Shown in pieces: positions 19,658 through 61,477 of a DNA stretch of 64,000 nt. Source of the DNA: Rubripirellula sp. (GTDB taxonomy: Bacteria; Planctomycetota; Planctomycetia; Pirellulales; Pirellulaceae); the NCBI GenBank assembly GCA_012270065.1, contig JAAXJB010000016.1, forward strand, positions 1 through 64,000. The letters run 5' to 3'. A model generated the notes under the pieces. It saw only the letters and a program-made list of their open reading frames with translations. It searched no databases and was not told the origin of the DNA. Both the position numbers and the translations under genes were made by a program. How positions within the stretch are numbered: the first letter of the stretch is position 1; every line of letters begins with the position of its first letter.

Positions 19658-19664
19658 ACGCGTC

Positions 19665-21866
19665 GTGGACATTTCAACCCAGTCACCTTCGTCACTTTTC
19701 TACGCATCCTGGCGGTTGCGCAGAATTGCATTGTGCGCGACGATTGTGCTGGGGTTGGCTTGCCTGTGGTGCACCATTGATGCAAATGCAACCGAGGCAA
19801 ATCATCACAACCGCCGATTAGCCGACTCGGCAGCAGGAACCCTCAAATCATCAAAGTCCCGACTAGCACCAGCAAACCGAAAACCGCTTGGCCAAACAGC
19901 CAATCCGCAGCCAAAATCCTCCGAGGTTCGTCCACCCACCATTGATCGCGAGACGTTTTTAAAAATAACAGCATTACCCGGAATGGATTCCGAAGTCGTT
20001 CCATCAGATGAGATACCCGCTGAATGGTACCGCAGGATTTTCGGAAGTCCGGCCGACGAACCTTCACGAGCACCCCGTGGTCAGTTCGTTATTCGCGAAA
20101 GTGAACCACATCAGACGGGCATTCCTTCCCAGCAAACTGAAGATGAAAACCGTGCCGGTAGGAACAACTCAGAGAAACGTCAAAATTCGGTCGTGTTCCC
20201 CCAGGTCACACTGCTCCAACCCACTGCATCCAATTCCACCGAATCGCCATCAGATCAACCAGCAGCGTTGGCACGGGAACGCCAAACGGAGAACAGTGCA
20301 TTCGCAGTGCCTTTTTGGATACAGAACTCTGAACAGACCCCACAAAACAATTACCCCACCCGATCTTCTGAAACGGTCGCTTCACCGACTTCCATTTTTT
20401 CAAATACCAACGGTTCAAATCGCCACCGTCGACATGCACTCAAAAAACTCACCCAGCGCATGACACCGGCAAATGGGATATCGCCCCAATGCGATCCATC
20501 GATGAATTTCTACAACGATTTTTCACCGACACCCATCGCAAATGAATCGATGTACCACGACGAACATCGTGAACAATGGGTCTACGACCATCACTATGAC
20601 GTACCAACACAAAGGCCGTGGGTCGAATGGGGACGCGTCTTTTATGGGGATGGGATCACTCCCCGCGGAAAAAACTGGTTTGGAGCCACCAACCTCGTGC
20701 GACCGGAGTTTTACGTCTACGGTGATTTCAGGTCAGGGATCATCGCTGGCAGGAATGCAGCGGGCCGTACGGACAATTGGGCAAACCGGCTGAACCTCGA
20801 CATGGACTTGAAAATCACCGACACGGAGCACCTGCATGCTTTCATCGGACCCATCGAAAACGAGGGACAGTTCACGCGGCTTGAATTGGTTGACGGTGAT
20901 TTGCAGTACCGGCAGGAAATCGACATCACACCATTCACTGGCTACTTTGAAGGCGACCTTGGTTCAATCCTGGGTGGACTGACCAAGCAGAGCGCGCCGT
21001 TTGAGTTTCCATTCACTTTGGGGCTGATTCCGCTGTTCTTTCAAAACGGGATCTGGATGGAGGATGCGGTCACAGGCGCCGCGTTCAGTCTCCCCGCACG
21101 CCACAGCAATCTACTGAACTGGTCGAATTACGATGCAACTTTCTTCGCAGTCTTTGACCAGTTGAACAGCCCCGCTTTCGGAACGAATGACCATGCTGCC
21201 CAGGCGTTCGGAACAGCATGGTTCATCGAAGCCTATCACGGGTACATCGAGACCGGTTACGCCTATGTGCGGAACCGGAATCAGTCGTCGCTGAGTTATC
21301 ACAACATCACGGCGAGTTATACCCGGCGTTATTTTGACCGGATCAGCAACAGCATTCGTGTGATCATCAACACCGGACAGGACCTGCCATCCGCCGAACG
21401 AACCGCTGACGGTGTGCTGCTCCTGGTGGAGAACAGCTGGATCACATCCAATCCCCTCACGGTGGTACCGTACGCCAACTTCTTCGCGGGCTGGAACCGT
21501 CCGCAATCGGTAGCACGGGCTGGAATTGCCGGTGGAATTCTCCGCAACACCGGGATCAACTTCGACACCGATGGCCTGAACGGACTGGCTACACTTGATG
21601 CCTCGGGAAGTGATACTGCTGGTGGTTCAATCGGACTGGATCTCCTGGGCCGTGACCTTGAAAAACAGCTCCTGCTGGAAGCTTCTTACCTCACCCCTAA
21701 CGGAAACGGAAATGCCGCAGTGAAAGGCGATCAATACGCACTGGGGTTACGATTCCAGATTCCTCTGAGCAACTCAACGCTTTGGCGATTTGACACCATG
21801 TATGGCTGGCGTGGCGGATTAGAGGATGTTTACGGAACGAGGATGGAGTATCGTTGGAAATTCTGA
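19665..21866 (+). CDS. Predicted outer-membrane beta-barrel protein
   Basis: A 733-residue exported protein of unknown family. The GTG start gives a signal peptide whose core is IALCATIVLGLACLWCTIDANA. Residues of roughly 40-280 are polar, Pro/Ser/Asn/Gln-rich and look disordered. From about residue 330 onward the sequence alternates short strands and turns, with paired aromatic residues (FYVYGDFRSGIIAG, LNLDMDLKITDTEHLHAFIG, ITASYTRRYFDRISNSIRVIIN). It ends in a barrel-type closing strand, TRMEYRWKF, with a terminal Phe as in many outer-membrane proteins. It follows the multiheme cytochrome by 7 bp with no room for a promoter. A porin-like partner for the cytochrome is plausible; no direct homologue is recognised, so the function is inference. 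Confidence 0.8.
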   Translation: MDISTQSPSSLFYASWRLRRIALCATIVLGLACLWCTIDANATEANHHNRRLADSAAGTLKSSKSRLAPANRKPLGQTANPQPKSSEVRPPTIDRETFLKITALPGMDSEVVPSDEIPAEWYRRIFGSPADEPSRAPRGQFVIRESEPHQTGIPSQQTEDENRAGRNNSEKRQNSVVFPQVTLLQPTASNSTESPSDQPAALARERQTENSAFAVPFWIQNSEQTPQNNYPTRSSETVASPTSIFSNTNGSNRHRRHALKKLTQRMTPANGISPQCDPSMNFYNDFSPTPIANESMYHDEHREQWVYDHHYDVPTQRPWVEWGRVFYGDGITPRGKNWFGATNLVRPEFYVYGDFRSGIIAGRNAAGRTDNWANRLNLDMDLKITDTEHLHAFIGPIENEGQFTRLELVDGDLQYRQEIDITPFTGYFEGDLGSILGGLTKQSAPFEFPFTLGLIPLFFQNGIWMEDAVTGAAFSLPARHSNLLNWSNYDATFFAVFDQLNSPAFGTNDHAAQAFGTAWFIEAYHGYIETGYAYVRNRNQSSLSYHNITASYTRRYFDRISNSIRVIINTGQDLPSAERTADGVLLLVENSWITSNPLTVVPYANFFAGWNRPQSVARAGIAGGILRNTGINFDTDGLNGLATLDASGSDTAGGSIGLDLLGRDLEKQLLLEASYLTPNGNGNAAVKGDQYALGLRFQIPLSNSTLWRFDTMYGWRGGLEDVYGTRMEYRWKF

Positions 21867-22017: not shown

Positions 22018-23259
22018 ATGTCTTCAAATCAACAACGTGTTCAACGCCGCCGCGACAGCCTCCGCCCCGAAGGACAAAACCTGCGTGGGACAATTTACGA
22101 CATCATTTTTGAAGCGGATTCCCCGGCAGGAAAGGCATTCGATATCGCGTTGCTCTTTGCCATTCTTGTCAGCATTTCCATTGAATCGCTGCAAACGGTT
22201 CCCGGTTTCACACAGCAACCACAACTGCTGAATCTGTTCAACATTTCGGAGTGGATCCTGACGTTTCTGTTCACGATCGAATACCTGCTGAGGTTGTTTT
22301 GTGTAAGAAAACCTCTTCGCTACATATTCAGTTTCTGGGGCCTGATAGATGTATTGAGCATTCTGCCGTCGTACATCACATACTTCATTGGTACATCTTC
22401 GCGGTCCTTTGTGATCATCAGAAGTATCCGCCTGTTGCGTGTTTTCCGGGTGTTGAAATTGTGGCGGATGATGAACGAGGCTGACGAACTGGCATCGGCA
22501 ATCTGGAAAGTCCGCGACAAAATCATCGTATTCGTGGCGGTTGTTCTGGTGGCCGTCACCATCAGTGGCACACTGATGTACCACATTGAAACTTATTCGC
22601 AGGGAATCATCGATGAACCTGCTGAAGATCTGGCCGTCGTTCTGAATCTTGATCCCACGACGATCGGCAAGGTGATGGATCAGGAGAATTACATCGTGTT
22701 GGAAACCGGAGCGACGCCGCTGAAATACCACCAACTACTCACACCAGATGAGTATCTGAATGCGCAGAAAGAATACAACGATGACATTTTCTCTGCCGAC
22801 ATCGGTCCTGATGCCATCGTGAAGATGGTGGCAGCCGTCAATCTGGAAGACATGATTGACAAACTTGAAATAAGGATCGAAACGGCGTCGACGCCCGATA
22901 CCCAGTCTACCCTTGAACGGGAACTGGAAGTCGTGAAATCCATTCGCGAGATCAACAGCCGTCCTCAAAGCAAATTCACTTCGATACCGCAGTCAATGTA
23001 TTGGGCGATCGTGACCATGACCACGGTCGGTTACGGTGACGTGGTTCCCCAAACCGCCCCCGGCAAAGTGATCTCAGCGATGTTGATTCTGCTTGGCTAC
23101 AGCCTCATCATTGTCCCATCCACCTTTGTGAGCGCCGAATTCCTCCAGAAGCGTCAGAGAAACTCCGAAGAGGCCGCTCCATGTGAACAATGCGGCGCGA
23201 CGGGACAACGAAGTGACGCGGATTTCTGCTACCGCTGCGGAGTCCGTTACCAGCGATAA
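22018..23259 (+). CDS. Voltage-gated-type potassium channel with long turret insert and zinc-ribbon tail
   Basis: A 413-residue six-helix ion channel of the inner membrane. S1 is FDIALLFAILVSISIESL, S2 lies around ISEWILTFLFTIEYLLRLF, and S4 is the voltage-sensor-like RSIRLLRVFRVLKLWR. S5 ends near residue 190 (GTLMYHIE). The pore helix SIPQSMYWAIVTMT leads to the potassium filter TVGYGD (336-341), and S6 follows. Between S5 and the pore helix, residues ~192-317 form an extra ~125-residue acidic, partly helical segment where KvAP-like and plant/animal Kv channels have a short turret. The C-terminus carries CEQC...CYRC (389-407), a predicted zinc ribbon. The ATG at 22018 directly follows a 151-bp gap from the barrel gene; it may be separately transcribed. 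Confidence 0.93.
   Translation: MSSNQQRVQRRRDSLRPEGQNLRGTIYDIIFEADSPAGKAFDIALLFAILVSISIESLQTVPGFTQQPQLLNLFNISEWILTFLFTIEYLLRLFCVRKPLRYIFSFWGLIDVLSILPSYITYFIGTSSRSFVIIRSIRLLRVFRVLKLWRMMNEADELASAIWKVRDKIIVFVAVVLVAVTISGTLMYHIETYSQGIIDEPAEDLAVVLNLDPTTIGKVMDQENYIVLETGATPLKYHQLLTPDEYLNAQKEYNDDIFSADIGPDAIVKMVAAVNLEDMIDKLEIRIETASTPDTQSTLERELEVVKSIREINSRPQSKFTSIPQSMYWAIVTMTTVGYGDVVPQTAPGKVISAMLILLGYSLIIVPSTFVSAEFLQKRQRNSEEAAPCEQCGATGQRSDADFCYRCGVRYQR
22591..22971 (+). other. Channel turret insertion (residues ~192-318)
   Basis: Coding segment of the channel gene with no counterpart in standard Kv turrets. It is in frame and uses codons like the rest. The product is rich in Asp and Glu, begins after YHIETYSQG, and ends before the pore helix at SKFTSIPQS. 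It contains LDPTTIGKVMDQENYI and a predicted coiled helix, NLEDMIDKLEIRIETA to LERELEVVKSIREI. It would face the periplasm. Confidence 0.8.
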
Positions 23260-26428: not shown

Positions 26429-28135
26429 TCATTTTGACTTCACCGGCACAAGTTCATTCCCTTCGACACGTATATCGGCATTTTTCCAGCCAGACGCGTT
26501 CGCATTGAAAATCGCATCGGAAGCTGCCGATGCGGTCACCTGATTTGCCAACACCACGCTCCCTGGCCTGGGGTCCACAAGATGAAACGCAGCTCGGTGA
26601 AACGTTGAGGCGGTATTGCCTTCCATCCGCAGCTTCGCTTGACTTGCGTGCACAGCGTGCCGCCAGTTGCTGAAGCTGTTATTCATCAATGTCACCTCAC
26701 TGTCCTGCAGCGCCCAGATCCCGAAATTCGGTGGCCCGCCCGGCCGCATGTTTTTACCAATCAGCCGGTTCTGATCGAGCACCACGCTCCCCGCGACCCG
26801 CACGCCAGCAACACCTTCGCCGGAAATGACATTGTCACGCAACAACGCTTTTGAACCTGCAAACACCATGACAATCGGTGGCAATCCGCCCGTCCTCTCG
26901 AAATGGTTGGACAACAATGTGACGTCCCACCCGGCCTGAACGCCGACAGCAACCTTGCCATTGTCCACCACGCGATTACCCGTCGCGACACAAACCCCGC
27001 GTTCGCAGGCATCGAACCCAAGACCTGAAAGCTGATTGTGGTGACAATGATTGTCGATCAATGTCGGCGTGGCGTTTCCCGCCTGACCAATCCCCGACAT
27101 CTCATTTTCGTAACATTCGTTGCCAACAATCATCGGGGAAGCTCCTGAACGTGAGCCAATCCCTGCCATTTTGTTGCGGTAACAGCGGTTTGCACGAATC
27201 ACAGGTTGCGATTCCTTCTCCGCGCCGATCCCTGCCATGCCATTGCTGTAACAGTCGTTATCCTGAATCACCGGACGCGTATCCTGTCCGCTCCTGACTC
27301 CAATTCCAGCCCGTCGATTACCGTAACAATGATTGCGCATCACAACGGGACAGGCTCCTTCACTGATGCCGATTCCCGCACGGATATTATTCCAACAACG
27401 GTTGTCAATAATCGCCGGGGATGCATTTTCGTGACCAATCCCTGCGTAAAAATTTTCAAAACAGTGGTTGCGTTGCGCATGGCCTCGCGATTGATTCATG
27501 AAACCGATACCGCCCCCCATGTTCCGATAACACACATTGTCAAAAACTCGTGTTTCGGTTGTGGAGGGACCTTGAACTGCGATTCCGGTGTACCCGACGT
27601 GATGAACGATGTTGTGCATTACATCACAATTAACATCATCAACTGAGATCCCGGCGATTCCCGGCGCACCGATGGGATCGTAGGGCTGCTCATTTCCGGA
27701 CGTCAAATGATGACGTTCCCATGATGCTGAATCGTACTTGCCAACATTTGTGACAGTAAAACCATCCAGACGGCTACCCTCGGCCATCTGAACACCCGCG
27801 TTGTCACCGTTGTCTCCACCCCCATCAATGATGGTACGCTCCGCACGCTGCAGGCCAACTTGCCCCCTTTCATCATCGCCAATACTACGCAGTGAAACAC
27901 CGGGTTTCAGCTTCAACCTCTCCTTGTACGTTCCCGGCTGCACCAGAATGTGGTCACCAGCCTTTGACTGATCAATGGCTTCCTGAATGGTAGCGTGTTG
28001 TTCTGGTACCCGCAGTGTTTCTGCGTTCACCATCTGCTGCAAGACAAGAACCAACATGACCATTGGCCCTGCGTAAACACGGCCACGCCCACCTGCTGAC
28101 CATCCAATGTGGCACCACGTCATCGACACAAACAA
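26429..28135 (-). CDS. Secreted right-handed beta-helix protein
   Basis: A 568-residue exported protein of the parallel beta-helix (PbH1, pectate-lyase/NosD-like) type. The N-terminus has a hydrophobic signal core (GPMVMLVLVLQQMVNA); starts at 28135, 28123 or 28063 are all possible, and I kept the longest. The sequence then gives the usual entry motif IQEAIDQSKAGDHILVQPGTYKE. Residues ~200-372 form eight turns of about 23 residues with the consensus NxCYxNxxAGIG, placing a Cys at the same spot in each turn (202, 225, 247, 270, 295, 318, 341, 364). No catalytic residues are evident, so a lyase or hydrolase role is unproven; binding or scaffolding is equally likely. It is convergent with xseA and divergent from the exported sulfatase. 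Confidence 0.85.
   Translation of the reverse strand: MFVSMTWCHIGWSAGGRGRVYAGPMVMLVLVLQQMVNAETLRVPEQHATIQEAIDQSKAGDHILVQPGTYKERLKLKPGVSLRSIGDDERGQVGLQRAERTIIDGGGDNGDNAGVQMAEGSRLDGFTVTNVGKYDSASWERHHLTSGNEQPYDPIGAPGIAGISVDDVNCDVMHNIVHHVGYTGIAVQGPSTTETRVFDNVCYRNMGGGIGFMNQSRGHAQRNHCFENFYAGIGHENASPAIIDNRCWNNIRAGIGISEGACPVVMRNHCYGNRRAGIGVRSGQDTRPVIQDNDCYSNGMAGIGAEKESQPVIRANRCYRNKMAGIGSRSGASPMIVGNECYENEMSGIGQAGNATPTLIDNHCHHNQLSGLGFDACERGVCVATGNRVVDNGKVAVGVQAGWDVTLLSNHFERTGGLPPIVMVFAGSKALLRDNVISGEGVAGVRVAGSVVLDQNRLIGKNMRPGGPPNFGIWALQDSEVTLMNNSFSNWRHAVHASQAKLRMEGNTASTFHRAAFHLVDPRPGSVVLANQVTASAASDAIFNANASGWKNADIRVEGNELVPVKSK
27020..27538 (-). repeat. Eight 23-residue beta-helix repeats
   Basis: The coding DNA repeats with a period near 69 bp. 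The units read NHCFENFYAGIG, NRCWNNIRAGIG, NHCYGNRRAGIG, NDCYSNGMAGIG, NRCYRNKMAGIG, NECYENEMSGIG and NHCHHNQLSGLG, preceded by a weaker NVCYRNMGGGIG. Cys spacing is 23, 22, 23, 25, 23, 23 and 23 residues. Confidence 0.85.
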
Positions 28136-49702: not shown

Positions 49703-52700
49703 TCACGATTTGTATCCGTCGATGTCACGACCGATCAACTGGAAGATCAAATCAACATTGTCCTCATTTTTTTTACGTCGATCCTTGTCAGTTTCAAAAC
49801 CAACACTTGATGCGGTTGCTTTACCTTTCTTGCGTCCTTGCCCGAATTCACGGAATTTTTCTTTGGCCGAAACTCCCCCACGCTTGTCCTCTTTGAGTAC
49901 CGCTCGATATCCGATGCCACTTTCCGGATCAGAATGCATTTTCCGGCTAATTTCAGCGGCATCTCCCAGTTTGGTATGAATCTTGAGTTTCAATTCTTCT
50001 GATTCCAACAACTCAATTTCGTGTTGATGGCGTGTATTCAACTCCGCATCAGCCGACAAATCGAGTTTGGCCAGTGTATTGATGACCCTTACTTCGTCAG
50101 CGTTGACGGCAACGCCATCATCGATGCCCGAAAGTAACACAACGTCCGCTGCAACTTCCGCCTGTGCACCGATGCGTCCTTCCTTGACCGCCTGGGCCCA
50201 ATCTTCAGCCGAACTATCCCGGTCCGTCACCGTACTTTTGACTCTGGAAACAATAGGATCAACGACCGACACAGTAATCGAAGTGCCGCCGATGGACGTT
50301 GCGGTGCCTGTTACAATTGCTGCGGTGTCTGCTGTGATGGAATCGTAGGTATACGGACTGCCCAGGCCAACAATATTGGCCGTAACGGAGGTACCGATAA
50401 ATTTCTCAGCATGAACCAGAAGCGTATCTCCCGCATTGGTTGATGTTCCGTTGCCCAACAAAGCAACCGTGTCGACATTCGAAATATCATTTACCGAATT
50501 GGCCTGTGGCCCTCCCAGACCAATGATCACAGCATCAGAATCAGCACGGGAACGCAGATCTGTATCACTGACAACTTCAATGTCATCGCCCGCTGTCAGG
50601 GTAAATCCGGAAAGGGACGTCGGATCTGTCGACCCCGACAAAGTTGAAACTTCAATGAAGTTCGTTGCAGAGGCAAGACACTGAAATCCAATCAGTCCAA
50701 TCAGACGCGTGAATGAATCCGTGTCAACCTGTGTGTAGGAACGCGCGTTTACCACAGCGTCATTTCCCGCATTTACATTTGCGTTATCCCCGATAAACGC
50801 AGTAACGAGTGAGTCAACGTTTGATTCTGAAGCTGCCGACCGGCCGGTGACCAGTGCGGCACCTCTTGAAACTGAATCAACATTGACCGCGCGAGCTGTG
50901 TCGTAGGCACCGGATTCATCCAGAACGTTTCCGTAGCCGAGTAAGTTCACATCGTTACCAGCAGTAAGCGTAGTATCGGGCAAAACAAGACTTTCGACCA
51001 CAGGCTCATAGGATCCACGGGCGTTGACTGCGCCTAGATTGAACAGAAGCGACCTACTCGTCTCGGCTGCATCCGCATCGACATCACCGGCCCCCATGGC
51101 AATTAACCGGACATCGTGTCCGGCGTCGATCACATTGGTAGCTCCGGCTCTGGCAGATACGTTGGGCGCTGATCGGGCATTCGTTTCAACGGCATTGCCA
51201 AGGCCAGCGAGGATTCCACCCTGAGTCCCCACGCCAGACACAGCCGAGTCGTTGCGTGTCAAGGCAAACACCTCGATGTCACCGTTCCTCGCAATGGCAG
51301 ACTCAACTCCGTTCAGAACACTCTCGACGGAACCAGACGACAAAGCCCTCGACTCGACAGAGCCCACTCCACCGGCACCAACCTGAGTCGCATCTGCCAC
51401 AGCTGTCGCATCGCTGAAGGACTGACTACGCAACGCGATATCTCCTTGCTCGGTGACCAGTTCGGCACGCTCGTCAGCTCGGGTGCTAATCGAAGGATTT
51501 GAAGTTGCAGTTGCGATAGAATTCGAAGCGGCCGCCCCACCGGCGTAAGCGGCGGCTTCTGAACTTGAACTTGCACCGTTGGGAAGAAAACTTCCTGATT
51601 GATCAACATTATGCAAAGATTCCAAGTTGATCGAACCATCCGCGTGCACCGTCACTTCGCTGCTGACCACCGTTTCGATCACGGGTGAAACAGAAGAATG
51701 TGCCTCCGTGTTTCCAACCGCAGCCAGCAATGCCCCGCTGTCGTAACGCACTTCTGAATCAGCATCCGAAACCGATTCTGTTCGCATGTTGACGTTCCCC
51801 GAAGCATACACGTCTGTCGTCAATGTGCTCTGCACGTGGGGGTCCACGCTGGTTTCTGCCCTTCCGCTTGGTACTGCCGCCACTACTGCCAAACTCGTGG
51901 CAGTGGAGCCAGCATTGACGACTGACTCATTCCTGGCGGATACGTCGACATCATCGACCTTGTAAATGATTCCCCCAAGATTTGATGAGATGTTACCCCC
52001 ACTGTGAATGGCACTGTTCGTGCCCCCGATACCGATGGCCCCCATGAGAGAGAATGCTTGGTCTTCCACGCTCATTTGCGTTTCTGACTGTGCTTTCACT
52101 TCCAAATCATCCGCTTCGATGATTTCTGCACCATCACCCACATGTGCCGCAACGGTCGGAACGGAATCGGCAGTGAGGTTCATCCCCGTGTACCCGCCAA
52201 TCAATCCGACTTCTGCCGCAAAACCAGTCACAACCGGTTCTCCGGCGACCACGGGTCCCAGAGAGTGTTCTGCCAACAAGCTGATGTCGCCATCGGTATT
52301 CACCTCAGCCGCTCCGGTCAATTCCGCCACCACTGTTGGTGTGGATTCGGCTGTGATATTGGCTTGCCCGGCTGTCACCGCACTGACGCCAATGGTTCTA
52401 CCGGAGGCAGAAGTTTCCATGTCGGCATTCGCCATGATCGCAATATCTCCTGTCGCATCAACCGGCGCACTGACCACCGCTCTGACGACAGGTTTCGCGC
52501 TTGTCTTGGAATCGAGTCCCGAGAGCGTGACACCGGACAGCGAAAAAGAATCTGCATTTGTCACGGTGCGGTTGTTTTCAGACGCAACCACCGTCAAATC
52601 ACTGGTTGAGTTCAGTCGTCCAGAAAGTACGGCATCGTTTCTACCATCTGCTATGGATTGCGCATTGGAAGTTGCCCCCGCAAGACCAGACACGCCAATC

Positions 52701-55700
52701 GATGCAACATCTGTTGCTGCACTTCGGTCTGACAATGACTCAATGGTGGTGTTTCCACCAACCACAACCACCCCGGTCGCCCCCAAACGAGCCTCCGTAT
52801 CGAATGAAGCCACTGCAGATACGTTGTTATCCTGAATAATAGCACCAGACACGGTCGGTGAAATCACATCAACGGCAGATTCGCCGCTCGCATCCGAGCG
52901 AATGTCCAAATTGTTGCCGACAAGCAGCTTCGCTGATTCTCCGATTCTGGTCGAAGTGGAGCCGGAATTGTCTGCCTTGGCGTTCATTGATCCCAACGCG
53001 AATCCCGAAACTGCCCCTCGCGATGCATTCACCAGGGCATTCTGCGTTACCGATGACTCAACCGAGACATCGTTACCCGTCTGGATACGTGTTTCCCGTC
53101 CTTTGATCCACGTATCGACATCCGGGTGAGCAAGAGCATCGACCCTGATTGCTTCCAAGCCTGCCGCGGAAATCCCCGCTGCATTTCCCTGAGCGTTTGC
53201 GAGAGAATCGTTATTCGTTTGAATGAAAACATCATCGCCTACGCAGACGAGGGCATCCTCAACATAGGTTGATACATCAGGTTGCATTTCCACCCGTGAA
53301 ACAGGGACGGCCACCGCGACAGCTCCAGCGGTTGCAGCCGTCAAACCGGCGTCACCATTGAGGAACGTCCTGTTTCCGACCAACAGGGATTCACGCAACA
53401 TCACAGTGGATCCGTCGCCTACCCAACTGTCTGATCGATGTTGATCGTCGACCTCTGATCTTGTCACGGAGACGGATACGCCTCCGGCCTCGATCGCGGA
53501 CGCTTTCGTTGTCAGGTCGTGATCCACATCGCTACGCACCACCGCCAAGCGAACCTGCGATAACGATGGGTCACAGACATCATGCGCGCCACCATCAAAC
53601 ACGTCGCCGATAGTAGCGTCACTGAGGTAGGCTTCGGTCAGCCCCTCTTCATGAATTTCGCTGACTGCTGCTGCAATTGCCACCAGACCCAAAGTGCCTT
53701 GCCCGGTTGTCACATCGACATCGAGATACTCATCCGCCTCCACCAACAACCGGTCGGTCGACTCAATCCAACCTCCATAGGCCACTCTTGCCGACTGTTC
53801 ACTGGATTCATTCACCACACCAACGGCCGCCCCTGCGGCTCCGATTCCGATCTCACCACTCAATGACCTGGAAACCGTTGTCTCCTCAAGTGTCGCCTGC
53901 ACGCGGGTGTCATTTCCAGCATTCAGGTGACCGAACACACCGGCATCCGTATCGCTGTGGACGTTTGTGACTGCCACAGCAGCGCCTACTCCGGCATAAA
54001 TCCCAACGCCTGCACCACCTGTTGATATATCAATCTGCATCCACTCTCTAGCGCGGACATCGATGTCATCGCCAGCGGTTAGAATCGCATTTTGCTTGAT
54101 GGTTGCGATCACACCTGACAGTCGATCCTTGGCGTGCAAATCGCTGTAAAGGTCTTTCTTGCTCGGTGTGCCTGGACCAAATCTCTTATCGAGCCGCACA
54201 TTCACCAAGTCGGCAGCTGCACTGGCAAATTCGTCAACGGCCGTTCCTCCCGATTCCAACGCCTTCATCTTTGTACCATTCAGCATGTACTCGGCATTGA
54301 ACGGAGCACCGATGTTCCATACAGAGACCGATCCCGACAGGCCAACCGCGCCTGCCCCACCGGAAACCGTATTGCTGTCAATCATTTTCTTTGAAAGCCC
54401 ATGAACATCGATATCATTCAACGCTTTCACATCAGCATCGTTGTCAACGTGACCCCAGACGAAATGCCGAACACGTCCGACATCGACCGCACCTGAAACA
54501 CCTGCGATGCCCAATCCGACACCGGTTGCAGAATCTTCGATGGTCGAGTGATTGACTGCCGAGACATTGACATTGGTCGGGACCTTTTCGCCATTGGCCC
54601 CCGGTGCCCCACCCGAATCAGCATCCACCGTTGCCTCTTTTCCAATCCATGCTTCCACGTGTGGCTGAACGACCGTGGCAGTCACCGCTGCGGCGACTCC
54701 AGCGTAAAGACCGGCGTTGACACCCAATGTCCGATTTTTGATCGTTTCGTTGGAGGTCGCCTGAACCTCGATTCCGCGAATTTCCTCCCGCAGGAAATTG
54801 CCGTTTGCATCGTGCTCACCTGAATATGCCTGAATTGTTCCTGGATGAGCTGCAGTTGCCTGTACGTTGGCCTGGGCATCGATGAAGGCCTGAACGTCCT
54901 TATGTACCTGTACGGTGCTGATACTTGCCCCCGCCCCTGCAACATAAACGCCCACACCGACTTCACCCGCGTTCGAATCAACAGCGGTCTGGTCGACAGC
55001 CTCGATCGAGACATTTCCTACCGCGTTTACATCAACGCCCTTCCCAACCCGTGCGCGTCCGACGGTATCCACGTGATTGGAAGCGATGGCCCCGGCAATC
55101 GAAAAGCCTGCACTGCCGGCGCCCTGCAACACATCCGTTTCGATGACTTCGGTTGTCACTGAATGAATCACGACATCACGTCCGGCAACCACGGACGTTT
55201 CTCCCTCCACCGCTGCATCAGTGTATTGCGTGATACGATTACTACTGCTCGATCCGGCAACAGCGACATCCGCCGCCAACGCACCGCCCACAGCAATTGC
55301 ACGATGGCTACTTCGACTGTTCACATCCACGACTACATCGTTGCCGGCATCGACATCCGAGTCTGAAATCACGGCTTTCAGAATTCGGTTCGTATCGTTG
55401 TCAACGACTGAAAATCCAATGGCCACGGCTCCGGCGCCGGCTAACCCTGGAGCGAGTGCATGAATCTGCGATGCATCAAAAGTGGTGACACTGATACCCC
55501 CTGCAGCAATGACGTTTGAATCGTCCATGATGCAACTACAGATCATGCCACCGATTCGGTTGACAGAAACAGAGCCGCCCAAGGCAAATGTTGCGGCACC
55601 GGCACCTCCAATCGCAAGTGCCTCGATGCTCGCGGAGTTCGTGGCCGCCACCGCCACATCGCCTCCGCTACTGATCTGTGAATCAATCACACAGGCATGC

Positions 55701-58700
55701 ACATTGGATTCAATTTCGTTCAAGCTGATTCCCGCTCCGATCGCCGCTGCCCCCGAACCCGCGAGCCCACCGGAAACAGTCCTTATCTCACTCGCGTTCA
55801 AAGCAGACACGTCGACATCATTTGCAGCTGTCACGTCCGACCCCGTGACGAGCGCTTCGACTTCTGACTGAACTTCATTGGTCCCCACACTACCCCCAAG
55901 GGCAAAGCTGCCTGCGCCAGCACCCCCGGCAGCCATCGCTTCAATGCTTGAATCACTGCTGGCTGTGACCCGAACCGAATTACCGCTGGTGGCCTGAGTG
56001 TCGGTCATTCTGGCAGCCACGTTTGCATCGATCTCATTCAGACTGACACCGGCCCCGATTGCAGCCGCCCCCGCACCAGCCAGACCACCGGTAATAGCAC
56101 TGATCCGGTTGCTGTTGGCTGCCAATATCTCAATGCCACGGTCAGCATTGACCGAGGAGTCGACGATGCTTGCCTCCATGGTGGATTCAATGTCGTTCGT
56201 GGCGACACCGCCTCCCAAAGCGAAAGTTTCGGCGCCGGCTCCGCCCACCGCGATGGTATTGATCTTCGAATCGTCAGTACCCACAACACGTACGAGACCT
56301 GCCGGCGTGGCGATGATCGAGTCAGCGACACGCGCTACGACATCAGACACCATGTCGTTCAAGCTCACTGCCGCACCCACGGCAGCACTTCCAGCGCCCG
56401 CAAAACCACCTGCAAAGGATCCGATCACATCCGCAGAATCAGATTGAACATTCACCCCGCTGATCGACGTAATGACACTATCGGTAACACTCGATTCAAC
56501 GATGGAATCCAAGCGGTTGATTGCGACCGAGACGGCCAATCCCACCGATTCCTGGCCGGCAACACCAACAGCAAATGACTTGATATCAGCTGTACCATTC
56601 GCGGTGACCGAGACCGATTGACCAGCATTCACATCCGACTGATCGATCGCTGCATTGACGCTTTGATTCAGCTGGTTGATCGCCAAAGCTCCACCAAATC
56701 CGCTGCCCTGATAAGCGACAACTGCGCCCGAAATGGACAGGATGCTGGACTCATCAGCTGCATTGACGGTCACTGATGACCCAGACACAACGGTTGATTC
56801 CGTGATTGCCGATTCAACCTGACCTTCCAGCTCGTTGATCGCGACAGTACCAGCGAAACCAAAATTCTTTCCGCTACCAAAGGATCCTGCTGCGGATACA
56901 ATCTGCGAACGGGTCACGGAGTCCAGCAACAGATGACGCTCAACGTCGACGCTCGAATTATCAATACCTGTCGCTGTCACTCCGGTCATCGAGTTCCAGC
57001 CAAAAGAAGCGCCGAATCCGACTTTGCCTTGCAATGCTGCAGCAGCGGCAATCGAGACCGTTTTTGAATCATCAATTGCCAGCAACAGGGCATCCCGACC
57101 GGCAAGAATGGTTGCATCATAAATATTCGCCTGAGTCTTCCACGACGCTTTGTTCAAGGAAACATTGTTCGCAGCAGCCAGTTGACCCTTGCTGAGTGCA
57201 GCGGAAGCAGTGGCCGCCCAGACACCTGAGGCCCTTCCGCGTTCAGCGGCAACCAGCACGTCACCCAAACCAGTGCTGAGTTGAGCATCCTGAATCCACG
57301 CCAAAGCTGATCCATCGACATCGTTGTAGGCCAGAGAGCCAGCAAGCCCAATTGACTGTTTCTTGGAGGTCAGTGCTGCTGAACCTGCAGCGGCGACCAC
57401 TGAAGTTTCGTCAGTCGCACGAACGGATGCTCTCTGAACATCAATCCCAGCGTTTTCATGAATGAATGCGTGAGCATGATTGTTGACATGGTTGACCGCC
57501 GCGTCACCCGAAAACGCGATGCCATAAGACCCCTGGTTTCCAGCCGAGGCGAAATTGGATGGCACAACGCCCGTGATATTATTTGTATTCTGCGGCGCAA
57601 CTGAACTGGCCAGTTCCTCGGACTGGATTGCTCCCGAAAGTGCGAAGCCATAGACACCTCCCACGTTATTCGCTTCGACCAGCAAGTCCCCTGTGGAAGT
57701 GATGGAACCACCGCCACCCCCGGCAGGCGAACCAATGTAGGCGTTTGTCTGTCGATCAACCTGGCTGTCAGCAACAGAGAAGCCAAACCCATAGTTTCCG
57801 GCCTGCAATACGCCACCAGCGAACCCCATTCCTAAAAGTTCGCTGTCACTTGTGACTGATATTGAGCCACCGACGATCTGCGACCCCACACCGATGCTTG
57901 CAGTTGTCTGGTTATCATGGCGGTTGAGAATGACGCTACCTGCGATGCCAAGGTTTCCAGCTTCGATGCCCGACATCGCAAACGAATACTGCCTCACACG
58001 CGAATCCGCATCAACAATCAACTCACCATCACCGCCAGTGTTGAGTAACACCTCATCACCGATGCTGGCGATGGTTTCATTTTCAATGTCAACGTAGGCA
58101 GATGACCCACCGATCCCTGTCTTCTCGGAGCCTGCTCCGTAATCGATATCGCTGTCATTCCAGGAAGTGGTTGCGGCGTTCTGTATCTCTGTCAGCAAAG
58201 CGGGCAGACCGCCGGTTTGGAATGCGTTCTGATATGCGTTCGTATCGGTGATCGCGGTAACATCAATGACCAACTCAAACAGCCCGGCGATATCAAGCGT
58301 ATAAATGTCTGAATCGGCCGTGACCTGAACGCTCTGCTGAGGTGATGCAAACGCTGGCGTCTGATTCACAAGAACGCCGTTGCCAATGGTCGCCGCAGTC
58401 AAGTTGTTGTAATCCTGATAGGTCAGCGAACCTGCATAGTCCGAGCGCCCATCAGTACTGTGTGATCGTGCCCATGAGTTACCCTCTATTTCGATCACCC
58501 GTGTTCCACCCTCTTCGACAAGAACCAGCGGTGGATTGTAGGGGTATTCACTTGTCGCATTGACACTCAGATCGCGAGACGCGTCTACATTTGCGCCATC
58601 CTCGATGCTGGCGGTCGTCTGATTGTTGAATATGCCAACGGCGACAGCCGTACTGACGACATCACCCTTGGGTTTGACTGCCGGATCCTGATCAACCACG

Positions 58701-60658
58701 CTTTCAGCAAAGGTACGGACCTTGGCGGTAAGCTTCGCATCAACATCCAAATCAAGCGTGGAATCCACGTTGGCAGAACCATGAATCGTTGCTGCAACAT
58801 GGTTATCGGAATCGATGACCGCTGTGGCGGTGGAGAAATCGAGACTGTTACCCACCAGACTGCCCACACTGTTGAGCAACAAGACGTCCATGATGGGTTT
58901 GATGTAGGTGTTCAGGAAATTCTGCACATTGATGTTCAATGACGAAACTGGCGCTGGCATGGCAGCGCCTCCCAGACCGGTCATAGCCACTGATTGCTCA
59001 TCCGTTTCCAGTTCAGCCAGAATGACGATGCCTTTCTGCCCTGAGCCAGCTTCCGATCGTAGTGATCCGTGAATATCCGTCGTTACGTTTGAAGTGGGAA
59101 GGGAAAACGAAGCTGCGATTCCAACACCACCCTCAACCTGAATCCCGGAGCTTGCTTCGGCCGAAACGGACTGCGTACCTTTGGCGTGAATCGTGAGATC
59201 GGATTGTGCCCTTACCCACGCATCTTCGGCTATCGAAATTTTTGAGTTCAAATCTGACTTTGCGACTGCAACAGCAATGGCCGTTCCTTCGGCCGGATTT
59301 GCCGCCCCCAGGTTCTTTGCAGTTTTGGCCTCGGCGGTAGCCTCGATCGTGGCATCGGTGGTCACGCTGACCTCATTGCCAGCCAGGATCGAAGCTCTTT
59401 CACCAATCGTGACTTCACTTGTCGATTCAACCTCAGTGACAGCAATCGCCTGAGTGACATTATCGACTTTGTTCTTTTCCTTGGACTTGGTTTTTGCCGA
59501 GATGATTACATCGACATCAGCCTCCAGATTGGCGTCATCACCGATCTGAACGATCGCCGTGGTCACCTCTTTTACCCGCCAAGCTGCAAATACGCCCGTC
59601 GAAACCAGAAAATCAGTCAGCTGCCCGCTGAGGTAATCCGATGTCTCCTGAAGCGCAGCTGGAATTCCGGCACCACTGGTCACAGCGTCCGCAATGTCCG
59701 AGAGGGTTGGAATTTCGGTCTCTGTATCAGCCCGGGCATTCAAATGAATCGATGATCCAAGCAGATCAGCTGCGCCGATTTCGATCGTGGCGGTCGCTTC
59801 CTGATTGAACAGATTGATCGCGTCAGTCCAAACAACGGTACCGGTAGCAATATCATTCAGGAGGTCATAAAACTCGAATGAAGTCGGCAAATCTTCGCTG
59901 ACATCCAGGGTTATGTCGCCGCTTGCAAATGCCGAACCAGACTCCACGTGCGCAAGTAACTTCGCATCATCATCAACTTCAATCGTGCTGGAGGTTAATT
60001 CGATCGACGTTGAATCTGCCAGGGAAGGATCGAGATAGTGGTCACCACCGGGCAGTATGGTCCGCGTTGACAGGATTGCATTTGTACCGATTCTTATCAG
60101 CGCATCACGCCCTGTCCCGGTGACAGTGATGCCCCCGGGGGCCGCAACAATGGCGTTTGGGGCGACGGTAGCGATCTCGGCCTGAATGTTCAGTTCACCA
60201 CCCGTCGTCAGCAAATCGAGATCGCTTACCACTCTTACGCTATCGACGTCAGCGTCACCAGCATCAACAACCGTGACATCCTGCCACCCGGAATGCCCTT
60301 CCAAATCCAACCTCAGCCTGTCATTGCCAGGTCCCAGATCGATCGTGACGTTGATTGGGATCGGGGGTGTCGTGCCAGCAGGCGACATGACAAAAGTTTG
60401 CGTCCCGGCAAGTCCATCATCCAGATCGGTGGTGTACGTCGCACCTCCATCCTGGCTCCATTGGAGCTCATTAGCGGAATTGACTGAGACGATCACGTCG
60501 TCTGAACCAAAGTTGCCTGTCAGTGAAAAATCTGTACCACTCAGACCCGCCGTGACTGCGAGAAGTTGTCGCCGTTCAAGGGTTTGATAACGGAGGTTTG
60601 ATCGGCGGCGAGATTTCCTTTTCGCATTTTTCTTTTTTTTTCGTTTCTGAGGGAACAT
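49703..60658 (-). CDS. Giant repetitive surface protein, LEPR-XLL-like N-terminus
   Basis: A ~3651-residue protein from one uninterrupted frame. The ATG at 60658 gives a very basic N-terminus (FPQKRKKKKNAKRKSRRR) followed by LRYQTLERRQLLAV, which fits the LExRxLL motif of planctomycete LEPR-XLL surface proteins; an ATG at 60703 is also possible. The body has thousands of residues of Ala/Val/Ser/Asp/Gly-rich short strands, resembling beta-solenoid filamentous adhesins such as LktA-type proteins. A central tract (residues ~1050-1920) is built of regular 53-residue repeats. Cysteines are few. The C-terminal ~170 residues are charged and different (KLKIHTKLGDAAEISRKMH, GVSAKEKFREFGQG), with no LPXTG, PEP-CTERM or barrel anchor. 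A role in adhesion or an S-layer-like coat is inference. Confidence 0.9.
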   Translation of the reverse strand: MFPQKRKKKKNAKRKSRRRSNLRYQTLERRQLLAVTAGLSGTDFSLTGNFGSDDVIVSVNSANELQWSQDGGATYTTDLDDGLAGTQTFVMSPAGTTPPIPINVTIDLGPGNDRLRLDLEGHSGWQDVTVVDAGDADVDSVRVVSDLDLLTTGGELNIQAEIATVAPNAIVAAPGGITVTGTGRDALIRIGTNAILSTRTILPGGDHYLDPSLADSTSIELTSSTIEVDDDAKLLAHVESGSAFASGDITLDVSEDLPTSFEFYDLLNDIATGTVVWTDAINLFNQEATATIEIGAADLLGSSIHLNARADTETEIPTLSDIADAVTSGAGIPAALQETSDYLSGQLTDFLVSTGVFAAWRVKEVTTAIVQIGDDANLEADVDVIISAKTKSKEKNKVDNVTQAIAVTEVESTSEVTIGERASILAGNEVSVTTDATIEATAEAKTAKNLGAANPAEGTAIAVAVAKSDLNSKISIAEDAWVRAQSDLTIHAKGTQSVSAEASSGIQVEGGVGIAASFSLPTSNVTTDIHGSLRSEAGSGQKGIVILAELETDEQSVAMTGLGGAAMPAPVSSLNINVQNFLNTYIKPIMDVLLLNSVGSLVGNSLDFSTATAVIDSDNHVAATIHGSANVDSTLDLDVDAKLTAKVRTFAESVVDQDPAVKPKGDVVSTAVAVGIFNNQTTASIEDGANVDASRDLSVNATSEYPYNPPLVLVEEGGTRVIEIEGNSWARSHSTDGRSDYAGSLTYQDYNNLTAATIGNGVLVNQTPAFASPQQSVQVTADSDIYTLDIAGLFELVIDVTAITDTNAYQNAFQTGGLPALLTEIQNAATTSWNDSDIDYGAGSEKTGIGGSSAYVDIENETIASIGDEVLLNTGGDGELIVDADSRVRQYSFAMSGIEAGNLGIAGSVILNRHDNQTTASIGVGSQIVGGSISVTSDSELLGMGFAGGVLQAGNYGFGFSVADSQVDRQTNAYIGSPAGGGGGSITSTGDLLVEANNVGGVYGFALSGAIQSEELASSVAPQNTNNITGVVPSNFASAGNQGSYGIAFSGDAAVNHVNNHAHAFIHENAGIDVQRASVRATDETSVVAAAGSAALTSKKQSIGLAGSLAYNDVDGSALAWIQDAQLSTGLGDVLVAAERGRASGVWAATASAALSKGQLAAANNVSLNKASWKTQANIYDATILAGRDALLLAIDDSKTVSIAAAAALQGKVGFGASFGWNSMTGVTATGIDNSSVDVERHLLLDSVTRSQIVSAAGSFGSGKNFGFAGTVAINELEGQVESAITESTVVSGSSVTVNAADESSILSISGAVVAYQGSGFGGALAINQLNQSVNAAIDQSDVNAGQSVSVTANGTADIKSFAVGVAGQESVGLAVSVAINRLDSIVESSVTDSVITSISGVNVQSDSADVIGSFAGGFAGAGSAAVGAAVSLNDMVSDVVARVADSIIATPAGLVRVVGTDDSKINTIAVGGAGAETFALGGGVATNDIESTMEASIVDSSVNADRGIEILAANSNRISAITGGLAGAGAAAIGAGVSLNEIDANVAARMTDTQATSGNSVRVTASSDSSIEAMAAGGAGAGSFALGGSVGTNEVQSEVEALVTGSDVTAANDVDVSALNASEIRTVSGGLAGSGAAAIGAGISLNEIESNVHACVIDSQISSGGDVAVAATNSASIEALAIGGAGAATFALGGSVSVNRIGGMICSCIMDDSNVIAAGGISVTTFDASQIHALAPGLAGAGAVAIGFSVVDNDTNRILKAVISDSDVDAGNDVVVDVNSRSSHRAIAVGGALAADVAVAGSSSSNRITQYTDAAVEGETSVVAGRDVVIHSVTTEVIETDVLQGAGSAGFSIAGAIASNHVDTVGRARVGKGVDVNAVGNVSIEAVDQTAVDSNAGEVGVGVYVAGAGASISTVQVHKDVQAFIDAQANVQATAAHPGTIQAYSGEHDANGNFLREEIRGIEVQATSNETIKNRTLGVNAGLYAGVAAAVTATVVQPHVEAWIGKEATVDADSGGAPGANGEKVPTNVNVSAVNHSTIEDSATGVGLGIAGVSGAVDVGRVRHFVWGHVDNDADVKALNDIDVHGLSKKMIDSNTVSGGAGAVGLSGSVSVWNIGAPFNAEYMLNGTKMKALESGGTAVDEFASAAADLVNVRLDKRFGPGTPSKKDLYSDLHAKDRLSGVIATIKQNAILTAGDDIDVRAREWMQIDISTGGAGVGIYAGVGAAVAVTNVHSDTDAGVFGHLNAGNDTRVQATLEETTVSRSLSGEIGIGAAGAAVGVVNESSEQSARVAYGGWIESTDRLLVEADEYLDVDVTTGQGTLGLVAIAAAVSEIHEEGLTEAYLSDATIGDVFDGGAHDVCDPSLSQVRLAVVRSDVDHDLTTKASAIEAGGVSVSVTRSEVDDQHRSDSWVGDGSTVMLRESLLVGNRTFLNGDAGLTAATAGAVAVAVPVSRVEMQPDVSTYVEDALVCVGDDVFIQTNNDSLANAQGNAAGISAAGLEAIRVDALAHPDVDTWIKGRETRIQTGNDVSVESSVTQNALVNASRGAVSGFALGSMNAKADNSGSTSTRIGESAKLLVGNNLDIRSDASGESAVDVISPTVSGAIIQDNNVSAVASFDTEARLGATGVVVVGGNTTIESLSDRSAATDVASIGVSGLAGATSNAQSIADGRNDAVLSGRLNSTSDLTVVASENNRTVTNADSFSLSGVTLSGLDSKTSAKPVVRAVVSAPVDATGDIAIMANADMETSASGRTIGVSAVTAGQANITAESTPTVVAELTGAAEVNTDGDISLLAEHSLGPVVAGEPVVTGFAAEVGLIGGYTGMNLTADSVPTVAAHVGDGAEIIEADDLEVKAQSETQMSVEDQAFSLMGAIGIGGTNSAIHSGGNISSNLGGIIYKVDDVDVSARNESVVNAGSTATSLAVVAAVPSGRAETSVDPHVQSTLTTDVYASGNVNMRTESVSDADSEVRYDSGALLAAVGNTEAHSSVSPVIETVVSSEVTVHADGSINLESLHNVDQSGSFLPNGASSSSEAAAYAGGAAASNSIATATSNPSISTRADERAELVTEQGDIALRSQSFSDATAVADATQVGAGGVGSVESRALSSGSVESVLNGVESAIARNGDIEVFALTRNDSAVSGVGTQGGILAGLGNAVETNARSAPNVSARAGATNVIDAGHDVRLIAMGAGDVDADAAETSRSLLFNLGAVNARGSYEPVVESLVLPDTTLTAGNDVNLLGYGNVLDESGAYDTARAVNVDSVSRGAALVTGRSAASESNVDSLVTAFIGDNANVNAGNDAVVNARSYTQVDTDSFTRLIGLIGFQCLASATNFIEVSTLSGSTDPTSLSGFTLTAGDDIEVVSDTDLRSRADSDAVIIGLGGPQANSVNDISNVDTVALLGNGTSTNAGDTLLVHAEKFIGTSVTANIVGLGSPYTYDSITADTAAIVTGTATSIGGTSITVSVVDPIVSRVKSTVTDRDSSAEDWAQAVKEGRIGAQAEVAADVVLLSGIDDGVAVNADEVRVINTLAKLDLSADAELNTRHQHEIELLESEELKLKIHTKLGDAAEISRKMHSDPESGIGYRAVLKEDKRGGVSAKEKFREFGQGRKKGKATASSVGFETDKDRRKKNEDNVDLIFQLIGRDIDGYKS
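54900..57500 (-). repeat. 53-residue tandem repeat tract with 106-residue super-period
   Basis: The conserved Asn codon (or its equivalent) of each unit lies at 57491, 57323, 57152, 56993, 56834, 56675, 56516, 56357, 56195, 56036, 55877, 55718, 55559, 55397, 55238, 55076 and 54914. Most spacings are exactly 159 bp, a few 162, and the first two 168 and 171. Between 56195 and 55559 the units alternate: type A (GGAGAGSFALGGSVGTNE) and type B (GGLAGSGAAAIGAGISLNE), so A-to-A and B-to-B distances are 318 bp. Confidence 0.85.
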
Positions 60659-61477
60659 GGACCTATCTCGTTTTGCAATGGCTATAAAAAAAGATGAAGC
60701 CATGCATTAAGGCAATCGAAATACCAAACGAGGGGTTGCCGACCGAACGTCGCGCGCAACGCCTGTTTTTTCCTGTAATCAGACGGTTTTCGAAGCGTGT
60801 TGCCTCAGGGGGTGTTGCACAACAGGATGGGGGTCGATTCGCAAAAGGCGAACTTGATTCCAATTTTGCGATTTGAAATCGCGTGCCAATTCACGTGCCC
60901 ATTCACTCGAACAGAGACAAAACACCGAACGAATGTTGCTCTGACTGGTTTGATGAACGAAGAAGGGACTGATCTGATTAGAAGAGACGGGAATCAAATC
61001 TTGACGACCATGATTCGGCTCGGCCACGGGAGCTGACAGAAATGGAAAGTGCAGGTCCATCCCTCTGATGTGCAACCGTGAAAGGCATTTCTGCGACCGC
61101 GATACGGGTTCATGTGTACAGCAAGGGCACGAAAACCAAATCGACATGACTTCCAAATCGACATCCTTGCGATCATTGGACGCCGATCACGAAAGTAATG
61201 GGTTCATACAGAACGCCTTTGGCTCATCAACCCGAAGTGCCGCCCACCCCCCCGAATAGGTTATCTCCACAGCATTAATTCTCGTGCGTTTATGCAATAT
61301 GCCTGAAACGCGGTTGCGGAGAGGCATGCAAACCCATGCAAGTTTGGGTACATCTGTCTATACTATTGCGTTCCTACCCAAATAGCAGCTATCCCCATGC
61401 TGGCTTGTCACAACAAATGATGGCCAACCAAGGCTTTGGCAGCACTCACGATTCCAACAGGACTATTGGAGAATTCC
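60659..61477. other. Large divergent intergenic region
   Basis: 819 bp between the giant gene (minus) and the DUF1549 gene (plus), the longest gene-free stretch here. Frames inside are not protein-like. Short CATGCAA direct repeats occur at 61325-61341, and a possible -10 box TATACT lies at 61359-61364 without a good -35. Regulation of the giant gene probably acts here. Confidence 0.4.
61359..61364 (+). promoter_or_regulatory. Possible -10 element
   Basis: TATACT preceded by TGTC lies about 115 bp before the GTG of the DUF1549 gene. No matching -35 hexamer is visible at the usual distance, so this is a weak call. Confidence 0.2.

What the first reader, a model, noticed from the sequence alone, without database searches (positions are those of the whole stretch)
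54900..57500. Phase-locked 53-residue repeats with a 106-residue super-period in a giant protein
Seventeen successive repeat anchors can be placed by eye, most exactly 159 bp apart. Within 55559-56195 two unit types alternate (FALGGSV and AAIGAGVSLN forms), which gives a second period of 318 bp. This suggests an ancestral single repeat, then duplication of A-B pairs, and a strict structural length per unit, as expected of a beta-solenoid. The strict length despite sequence drift is the striking point.
Basis: seen in the sequence. Interest (0 to 1): 0.72.

Follow-up and report, generated by a model that had tools for sequence, protein, structure and literature searches.

The report
Giant surface protein of paired repeats
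A bacterium of the Planctomycetes encodes a giant, probably surface-exposed protein built from a known kind of 53-residue repeat, and comparison with relatives suggests that these repeats often come in two alternating types, so that the natural building block may be a pair.

Summary
One 3,666-residue frame (49703-60703, minus strand) carries tandem repeats; autocorrelation is high at 53 and 106 residues. Seventeen successive units can be placed; 10 of 16 spacings are exactly 53. The repeat is catalogued: NCBIfam NF012206 (LktA_tand_53), 277 bits, cut-off 50. It extends well beyond the reported interval. Strict length is local: in nine related frames steps of 53-55 and 60-62 are equally common (41 each of 196).

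The 106-residue period is real, and an orthologue differs by exactly one 106-residue pair. Alternation recurs in distant giant proteins of the phylum: 13 of 24 arrays at p<=0.05, largely in the same two classes, with 486 of 486 testable triples phase-consistent. These proteins are homologous, so the arrays are not independent, and the window's own array fits the shared profile poorly.

AlphaFold2 gives a regular all-beta model for six units (pLDDT 93.5), consistent with a beta-solenoid, a fold this method is known to over-predict. Best reading: an exported stalk-like surface protein, probably for attachment or matrix. New member of a known kind; the pair module is the interesting part.

The parts
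49703..60703 (-). giant coding sequence, 3666 aa, one open frame
   Evidence: NCBIfam NF012206 at 277 bits
60560..60580 (-). LERRQLL motif (aa 42-48) after a basic stretch: planctomycete extracellular-type N-terminus
   Evidence: sequence; Pfam PF07595 only sub-threshold, 12.2 bits against cut-off 25.5
50405..59596 (-). whole extent of recognisable repeat units (aa 370-3433), 45 profile matches at a liberal threshold, degenerate towards both ends
55103..57178 (-). regular array, 13 units with steps of 53 or 54 (aa 1176-1867)
55265..56383 (-). alternating A/B core: A units start at aa 1441, 1548, 1654, 1761; B units at 1495, 1601, 1707
   Evidence: columns 4 and 45
56113..56114 (-). place where the orthologue in Planctomycetaceae bacterium Plancto7 has one extra A-B pair (exactly 106 residues; placement within the repeat is arbitrary)
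49706..50404 (-). C-terminal region, aa 3434-3666, no unit matched, charged tail; relatives found only in orthologues
   Evidence: 3 of 59 relatives

Best explanation
This is an exported giant surface or matrix protein of a Pirellulaceae bacterium related to Rubripirellula. Its body is an array of NF012206 (LktA_tand_53) repeats that stack into a beta-solenoid, one large coil of about 53 residues per unit, forming a stiff stalk. In the family the coils tend to come in two alternating types, A and B, that differ mainly at a few stack positions (mostly glycine in B, alanine/valine/isoleucine in A), so the working module is a pair of about 106-120 residues, and arrays can change length by whole pairs. 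The stalk most likely serves attachment or matrix building, as suggested by lectin and dockerin domains in related giants. Shown: repeat, family, alternation, one pair-sized length difference. Predicted: fold. Inferred: export, stalk, attachment.
For: Family hit at 277 bits with 26 stretches. Period and alternation. Exact 106-residue difference from an orthologue as the only gap in an 867-residue stretch, with the unit spacing otherwise identical from aa 622 to 2995. AlphaFold2 model of aa 1441-1760: pLDDT 93.5, pTM 0.85, per unit about a 20-, a 4- and a 20-residue strand. Best structural matches are SufB/SufD chains, Z 11.6-12.2, 172-177 residues, rmsd 2.7-3.0 A (that these are beta-helices is recalled); about 30 of their residues align per 53-residue unit, which fits one coil per unit (inference). 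Columns at least 80% hydrophobic are charged in at most 6% of units. Alternation: parity positive in 20 of 24 arrays, p<=0.05 in 13 of 24; column 4 glycine state flips between neighbours in 199 of 263 cases, 133 expected, 0 of 2000 shuffles (column chosen). Leave-genome-out parity 260 of 324 units at the better phase against 199 expected by shuffling. The window's array shares the classes with 9 of 23 arrays at p<=0.05. Of six relatives scanned in whole or part, Dockerin_1 is found in four (L030, L036, L051, L057), lectins in two (L037, L057), Planc_extracel over cut-off in one (L030).
Against: The window's own array is classified poorly by the A/B profile learned from other genomes (11 of 19 units, p=0.18; accuracies of the orthologues 0.52 and 0.60, not significant), and columns 4 and 45 alone are not significant in it (p 0.17 and 0.20). 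Four of 24 arrays show negative parity, two strongly (L045_1466, L056_900). Arrays are related: one cluster at 32% identity, 3 of 6 clusters significant at 35%. AlphaFold2 is reported to give confident but false beta-solenoids for repeat sequences (PMC11795689, passages read). One of its five models here scored only 43.3. No Foldseek match at E<=0.001, and the tool warns that Z below about 13 for repeats may mean only a common arrangement. The C-terminal model failed (pLDDT 33.5). No lectin, dockerin or anchor was found in the window protein itself.
Confidence: 0.65

Rival explanations
1. The A-B pattern is only the trace of a few local pair duplications in this gene lineage; there is no general two-type module, and agreement between arrays reflects collinear descent of the same array.
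For: In the window clear alternation is confined to 7 units, and the family profile does not recover the window's phase. The arrays are homologous at about 31% median identity and form one cluster at 32%; step series of L033 and L034 run parallel.
Against: Alternation is seen inside single arrays, tested on each array alone: 9 of 24 at p<=0.01. It falls in 10 of 19 clusters formed at 40% identity and 11 of 21 at 45%. Dropping the one or two best diagonals between arrays leaves 190 and 179 of 288 pairs at p<=0.05, and among pairs at p<=0.01 no phase conflict in 486 triples.
Confidence: 0.25
2. The array is not a beta-solenoid but a chain of separate small beta domains; the AlphaFold2 solenoid is an artefact of repetition.
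For: AlphaFold2 bias described in PMC11795689; fifth model at pLDDT 43.3; Foldseek finds no match at E<=0.001; SufB/SufD cover only about half of the residues.
Against: Units are only 13-58% identical, not perfect repeats; four of five models score 91-93.5 (their shapes were not compared); conserved hydrophobic columns exclude charge. The same method gave no confident solenoid for the C-terminal part, but that alignment had only three rows, so this counts little.
Confidence: 0.15
3. It is a leukotoxin-like secreted toxin, as the family name suggests.
For: The family NF012206 is named after LktA.
Against: The match is to the repeat only. Pfam reports no secretion or toxin domain (two sub-threshold hits in all). 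The repeat is present in 22 of 59 relatives, some of whose giants carry lectins and dockerins.
Confidence: 0.03

Closest known systems
NCBIfam NF012206 LktA_tand_53 (tandem repeat-containing filamentous protein)
   Same: 53-position repeat; 277 bits, 26 stretches in this protein
   Different: One model of 53 positions; here and in relatives two types alternate. Units of 60-62 residues are common in relatives.
Fusobacterium leukotoxin LktA-type filamentous adhesins (recalled, not fetched)
   Same: Give the repeat family its name; giant secreted proteins (recalled)
   Different: Secreted by two-partner secretion (recalled); no such domain was found here. N-terminal LERRQLL motif instead.
Giant genes (>15 kb) of Rubripirellula and other Planctomycetes (PMC8303584, two passages seen)
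   Same: Related lineage, very long genes
   Different: The two passages count such genes and do not describe their repeats; this gene is 11 kb.
SufB/SufD chains (PDB 5awg, 2zu0, 5awf, 9a7k, 1vh4)
   Same: Best structural matches, Z 11.6-12.2
   Different: 7-9% identity; the coil seems shorter (inference from about 30 residues aligned per unit); unrelated function (recalled).

Membership tests
NCBIfam NF012206 LktA_tand_53 | whole-protein score over the curated cut-off of 50 bits | tested here: met
   277.2 bits, E 2.7e-84
NCBIfam NF012206 LktA_tand_53 | tandem copies of a 53-position unit | tested here: met
   26 stretches; 10 of 16 steps exactly 53 in the regular part
Two-partner secreted filamentous haemagglutinin / LktA exoprotein | N-terminal TPS secretion domain | tested here: not met
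   no such Pfam match at E<=1
Type V autotransporter | C-terminal beta-barrel translocator | tested here: not met
   no such Pfam match at E<=1; C-terminus is a charged tail
Planctomycete extracellular proteins (Pfam PF07595) | N-terminal LExRxLL-type motif over the cut-off | tested here: not met
   12.2 bits against 25.5; the letters LERRQLL are present. Relatives: L030 over (31.5), L057 under (18.6), L036 not listed at E<=0.01
Beta-solenoid | regular parallel beta coils, one per unit | tested here: inconclusive
   AlphaFold2 pLDDT 93.5, all-beta, regular; Z 12.2 at best; known over-prediction of this fold; coordinates not inspected
Leukotoxin | cytotoxic activity | not testable with these tools
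   none

The most novel reading that the evidence does not exclude
The LktA-type 53-residue repeat is half of the true module: in planctomycete giant proteins two coil types, A and B, alternate, with small (glycine) and larger side chains taking turns at the same stack positions, and arrays grow and shrink by whole pairs. The single-repeat model in the database hides this.
Probability: 0.6. Interest if true: 0.45.

Novelty: new member of a known kind. Interest (0 to 1): 0.35.

Why it matters
Giant genes are typical of Planctomycetes (recalled) and mostly unexplained. Placing this one in a known repeat family, with a pair-sized length difference between species and an alternating two-coil pattern in related giants, gives a concrete rule for how such arrays may be built and change, and a well-defined fragment for structure determination.

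Tried and rejected
Pfam and PDB sequence searches gave nothing useful for the array (the weak Dit-like, dehydrogenase and CMPX hits are taken as chance). Foldseek gave no match at E<=0.001. Prediction of the C-terminal 778 residues from three sequences failed and is not used. No plasmid record matched at E<=1e-5. Paper searches showed nothing on this repeat in their listings, with four spellings of '53-residue repeat', found 0 papers in the open PMC library. The one paper holding the LktA family phrase was not read.

Choices that bear on the A/B result. A first run with shorter arrays (at least 6 units, 13 arrays) was replaced (at least 7 units), which drops two six-unit arrays (L032, and L033 from 2774; parity p 0.57 and 0.08). 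One search was confounded by collinear descent; one search repeats it with the best diagonals removed. Loci were chosen from strong family matches plus G170, not at random; 27 frames were taken, 23 of them gave an array. L028 was left out; L027 and L028 are left out of the totals; L027 remains in the 288 pairs and the triples. Columns 4 and 45 were picked. The hydrophobic alternation test is weak (p 0.04-0.06). The unit tree groups some B units but does not resolve A and B as two supported clades. Gain or loss of the extra pair in L042 could not be polarised, because L043 ends inside the array.

Full report
Setting. The window is part of a 7.0 Mb genome in 122 contigs. Three of 59 relatives have an orthologue of the C-terminus: one at 93% over a contig edge (unnamed), and two longer ones that names as Planctomycetaceae bacterium Plancto7 (PKCN01000132.1) and Rubripirellula sp. 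ANT-60 (JAPKCI010000153.1). That the host is a Rubripirellula-like member of the Pirellulaceae is inferred from these. The gene is one open frame of 3,666 codons on the minus strand, 49703-60703. Downstream lie a small protein with sub-threshold zinc-ribbon matches, a biotin ligase and an SDR enzyme; a PSCyt2/PSD1 protein is transcribed divergently upstream.

The observation. Autocorrelation is high at 53 and 106 residues. An own-profile search finds 45 matches from aa 370 to 3433. The DNA itself is hardly repetitive any more.

What the repeat is. NCBIfam NF012206, LktA_tand_53, matches at 277 bits with 26 stretches. In this genome its 19 matches at E<=0.001 all lie in this gene. It occurs in 22 of 59 relatives (14 of 21 in the same genus, 5 of 15 in the same family, 3 of 23 in the same order; counted, whose tally of 23 of 60 includes the window's genome; 10 of 60 over the curated cut-off) and in 2 of 293 other genomes drawn across the phylum (own genome set aside).

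Length. Over 12 giant frames the commonest steps are 53 (45), 54 (25), 61 (20), and 55, 60 and 62 (13 each). Twenty-eight of the 45 come from this gene and its two orthologues. In the other nine frames, of 196 steps, 61 occurs 20 times and 53 17 times, and 53-55 and 60-62 occur 41 times each. Length is therefore conserved locally, not strictly. Against the Plancto7 orthologue the unit spacing is identical from aa 622 to 2995 except for one pair; further on there are single-residue differences.

The super-period. In units 1441-1761 second neighbours are more alike than first neighbours (p=0.008). Against the Plancto7 orthologue there is one gap of exactly 106 residues and no other in 867 residues. 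The Rubripirellula contig ends inside the array, so gain and loss cannot be told apart.

A pattern shared by relatives. In 24 arrays of at least 7 units (window plus non-orthologous giants) parity is positive in 20, p<=0.05 in 13 and p<=0.01 in 9. Between arrays of different genomes, 190 of 288 pairs share the classes at p<=0.05 after removal of the best diagonal (154 at p<=0.01), and all 486 triples made of pairs at p<=0.01 are phase-consistent. The window's array does so with 9 of 23. A leave-genome-out profile recovers parity for 260 of 324 units at the better phase, 199 expected by shuffling, significantly in 18 of 26 arrays, but not in the window's array or its two orthologues. The main difference lies in columns 4 and 45: mostly glycine in B, larger residues in A. 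Column 4 flips between neighbours in 199 of 263 cases (133 expected), column 45 in 154 of 267 (116 expected); L057 flips at every one of 22 steps in both. The arrays are homologous and not independent: one cluster at 32% identity, 6 clusters at 35% (3 with a significant array), 19 at 40% (10), 21 at 45% (11). Some arrays also show lag 4 above lag 2: clearly L046, L049_552, L052 and L057, slightly L037, L044 and L053.

Fold. AlphaFold2 with six aligned rows gives a confident regular all-beta model for six units; four models score 91-93.5 and the fifth 43.3. The best solved matches after realignment are SufB/SufD chains, Z up to 12.2, which the tool says may mean only a common arrangement for repeats. 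A published warning says that this method produces confident false solenoids for repeats (PMC11795689, passages; the paper tested perfect repeats of random sequence). Points against an artefact are the divergence of the units and the lack of charge at the conserved hydrophobic columns. At about 0.48 nm per coil (recalled), 45-65 coils would make a rod of roughly 20-30 nm; this is inference.

Function. Export is inferred from the basic N-terminus with LERRQLL (sub-threshold in Pfam). Of seven non-orthologous relatives with a closed 5' end examined, five carry LExRxLL by pattern (L031, L032, L034, L036, L038) and two a near form seen by eye (L030, L033). Of six relatives scanned with Pfam (two whole, four in part), four hold a C-terminal dockerin (L030, L036, L051, L057), one of these also legume-type lectin domains (L057) and one RTX repeats (L051); L037 holds C-type lectin and laminin-G-like domains near its contig end; L052 shows none in its last 1000 residues. 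Attachment or matrix building is therefore the most likely role; the window protein lacks those domains, and its own C-terminus was found only in orthologues.

Noticed in passing
window 26429-28135 (-): A separate right-handed beta-helix protein (Pfam Beta_helix, NosD) lies in the same window.
   Followed up: no
window 17540-21866 (+): A protein matching multihaem cytochrome families (Cytochrome_C554) is followed by a 733-residue frame without a Pfam match at E<=0.001.
   Followed up: no
window 22018-23259 (+): An ion-channel protein (Ion_trans, Ion_trans_2).
   Followed up: no
L028 7193-8287, L027 9866-11263: In two orthologous loci similar proteins with two alike halves (by eye) lie downstream of the giant gene; no such frame is listed at that place in the window.
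   Followed up: no
L037 both ends: The ends of this contig read as peptides that look like translated sequencing adapter (recalled), so the contig ends may be artefacts.
   Followed up: no
L045 array from aa 1466, L056 array from aa 900: Two arrays have first neighbours more alike than second neighbours (parity p 0.97 and 0.98), as single-unit duplication would give.
   Followed up: partly
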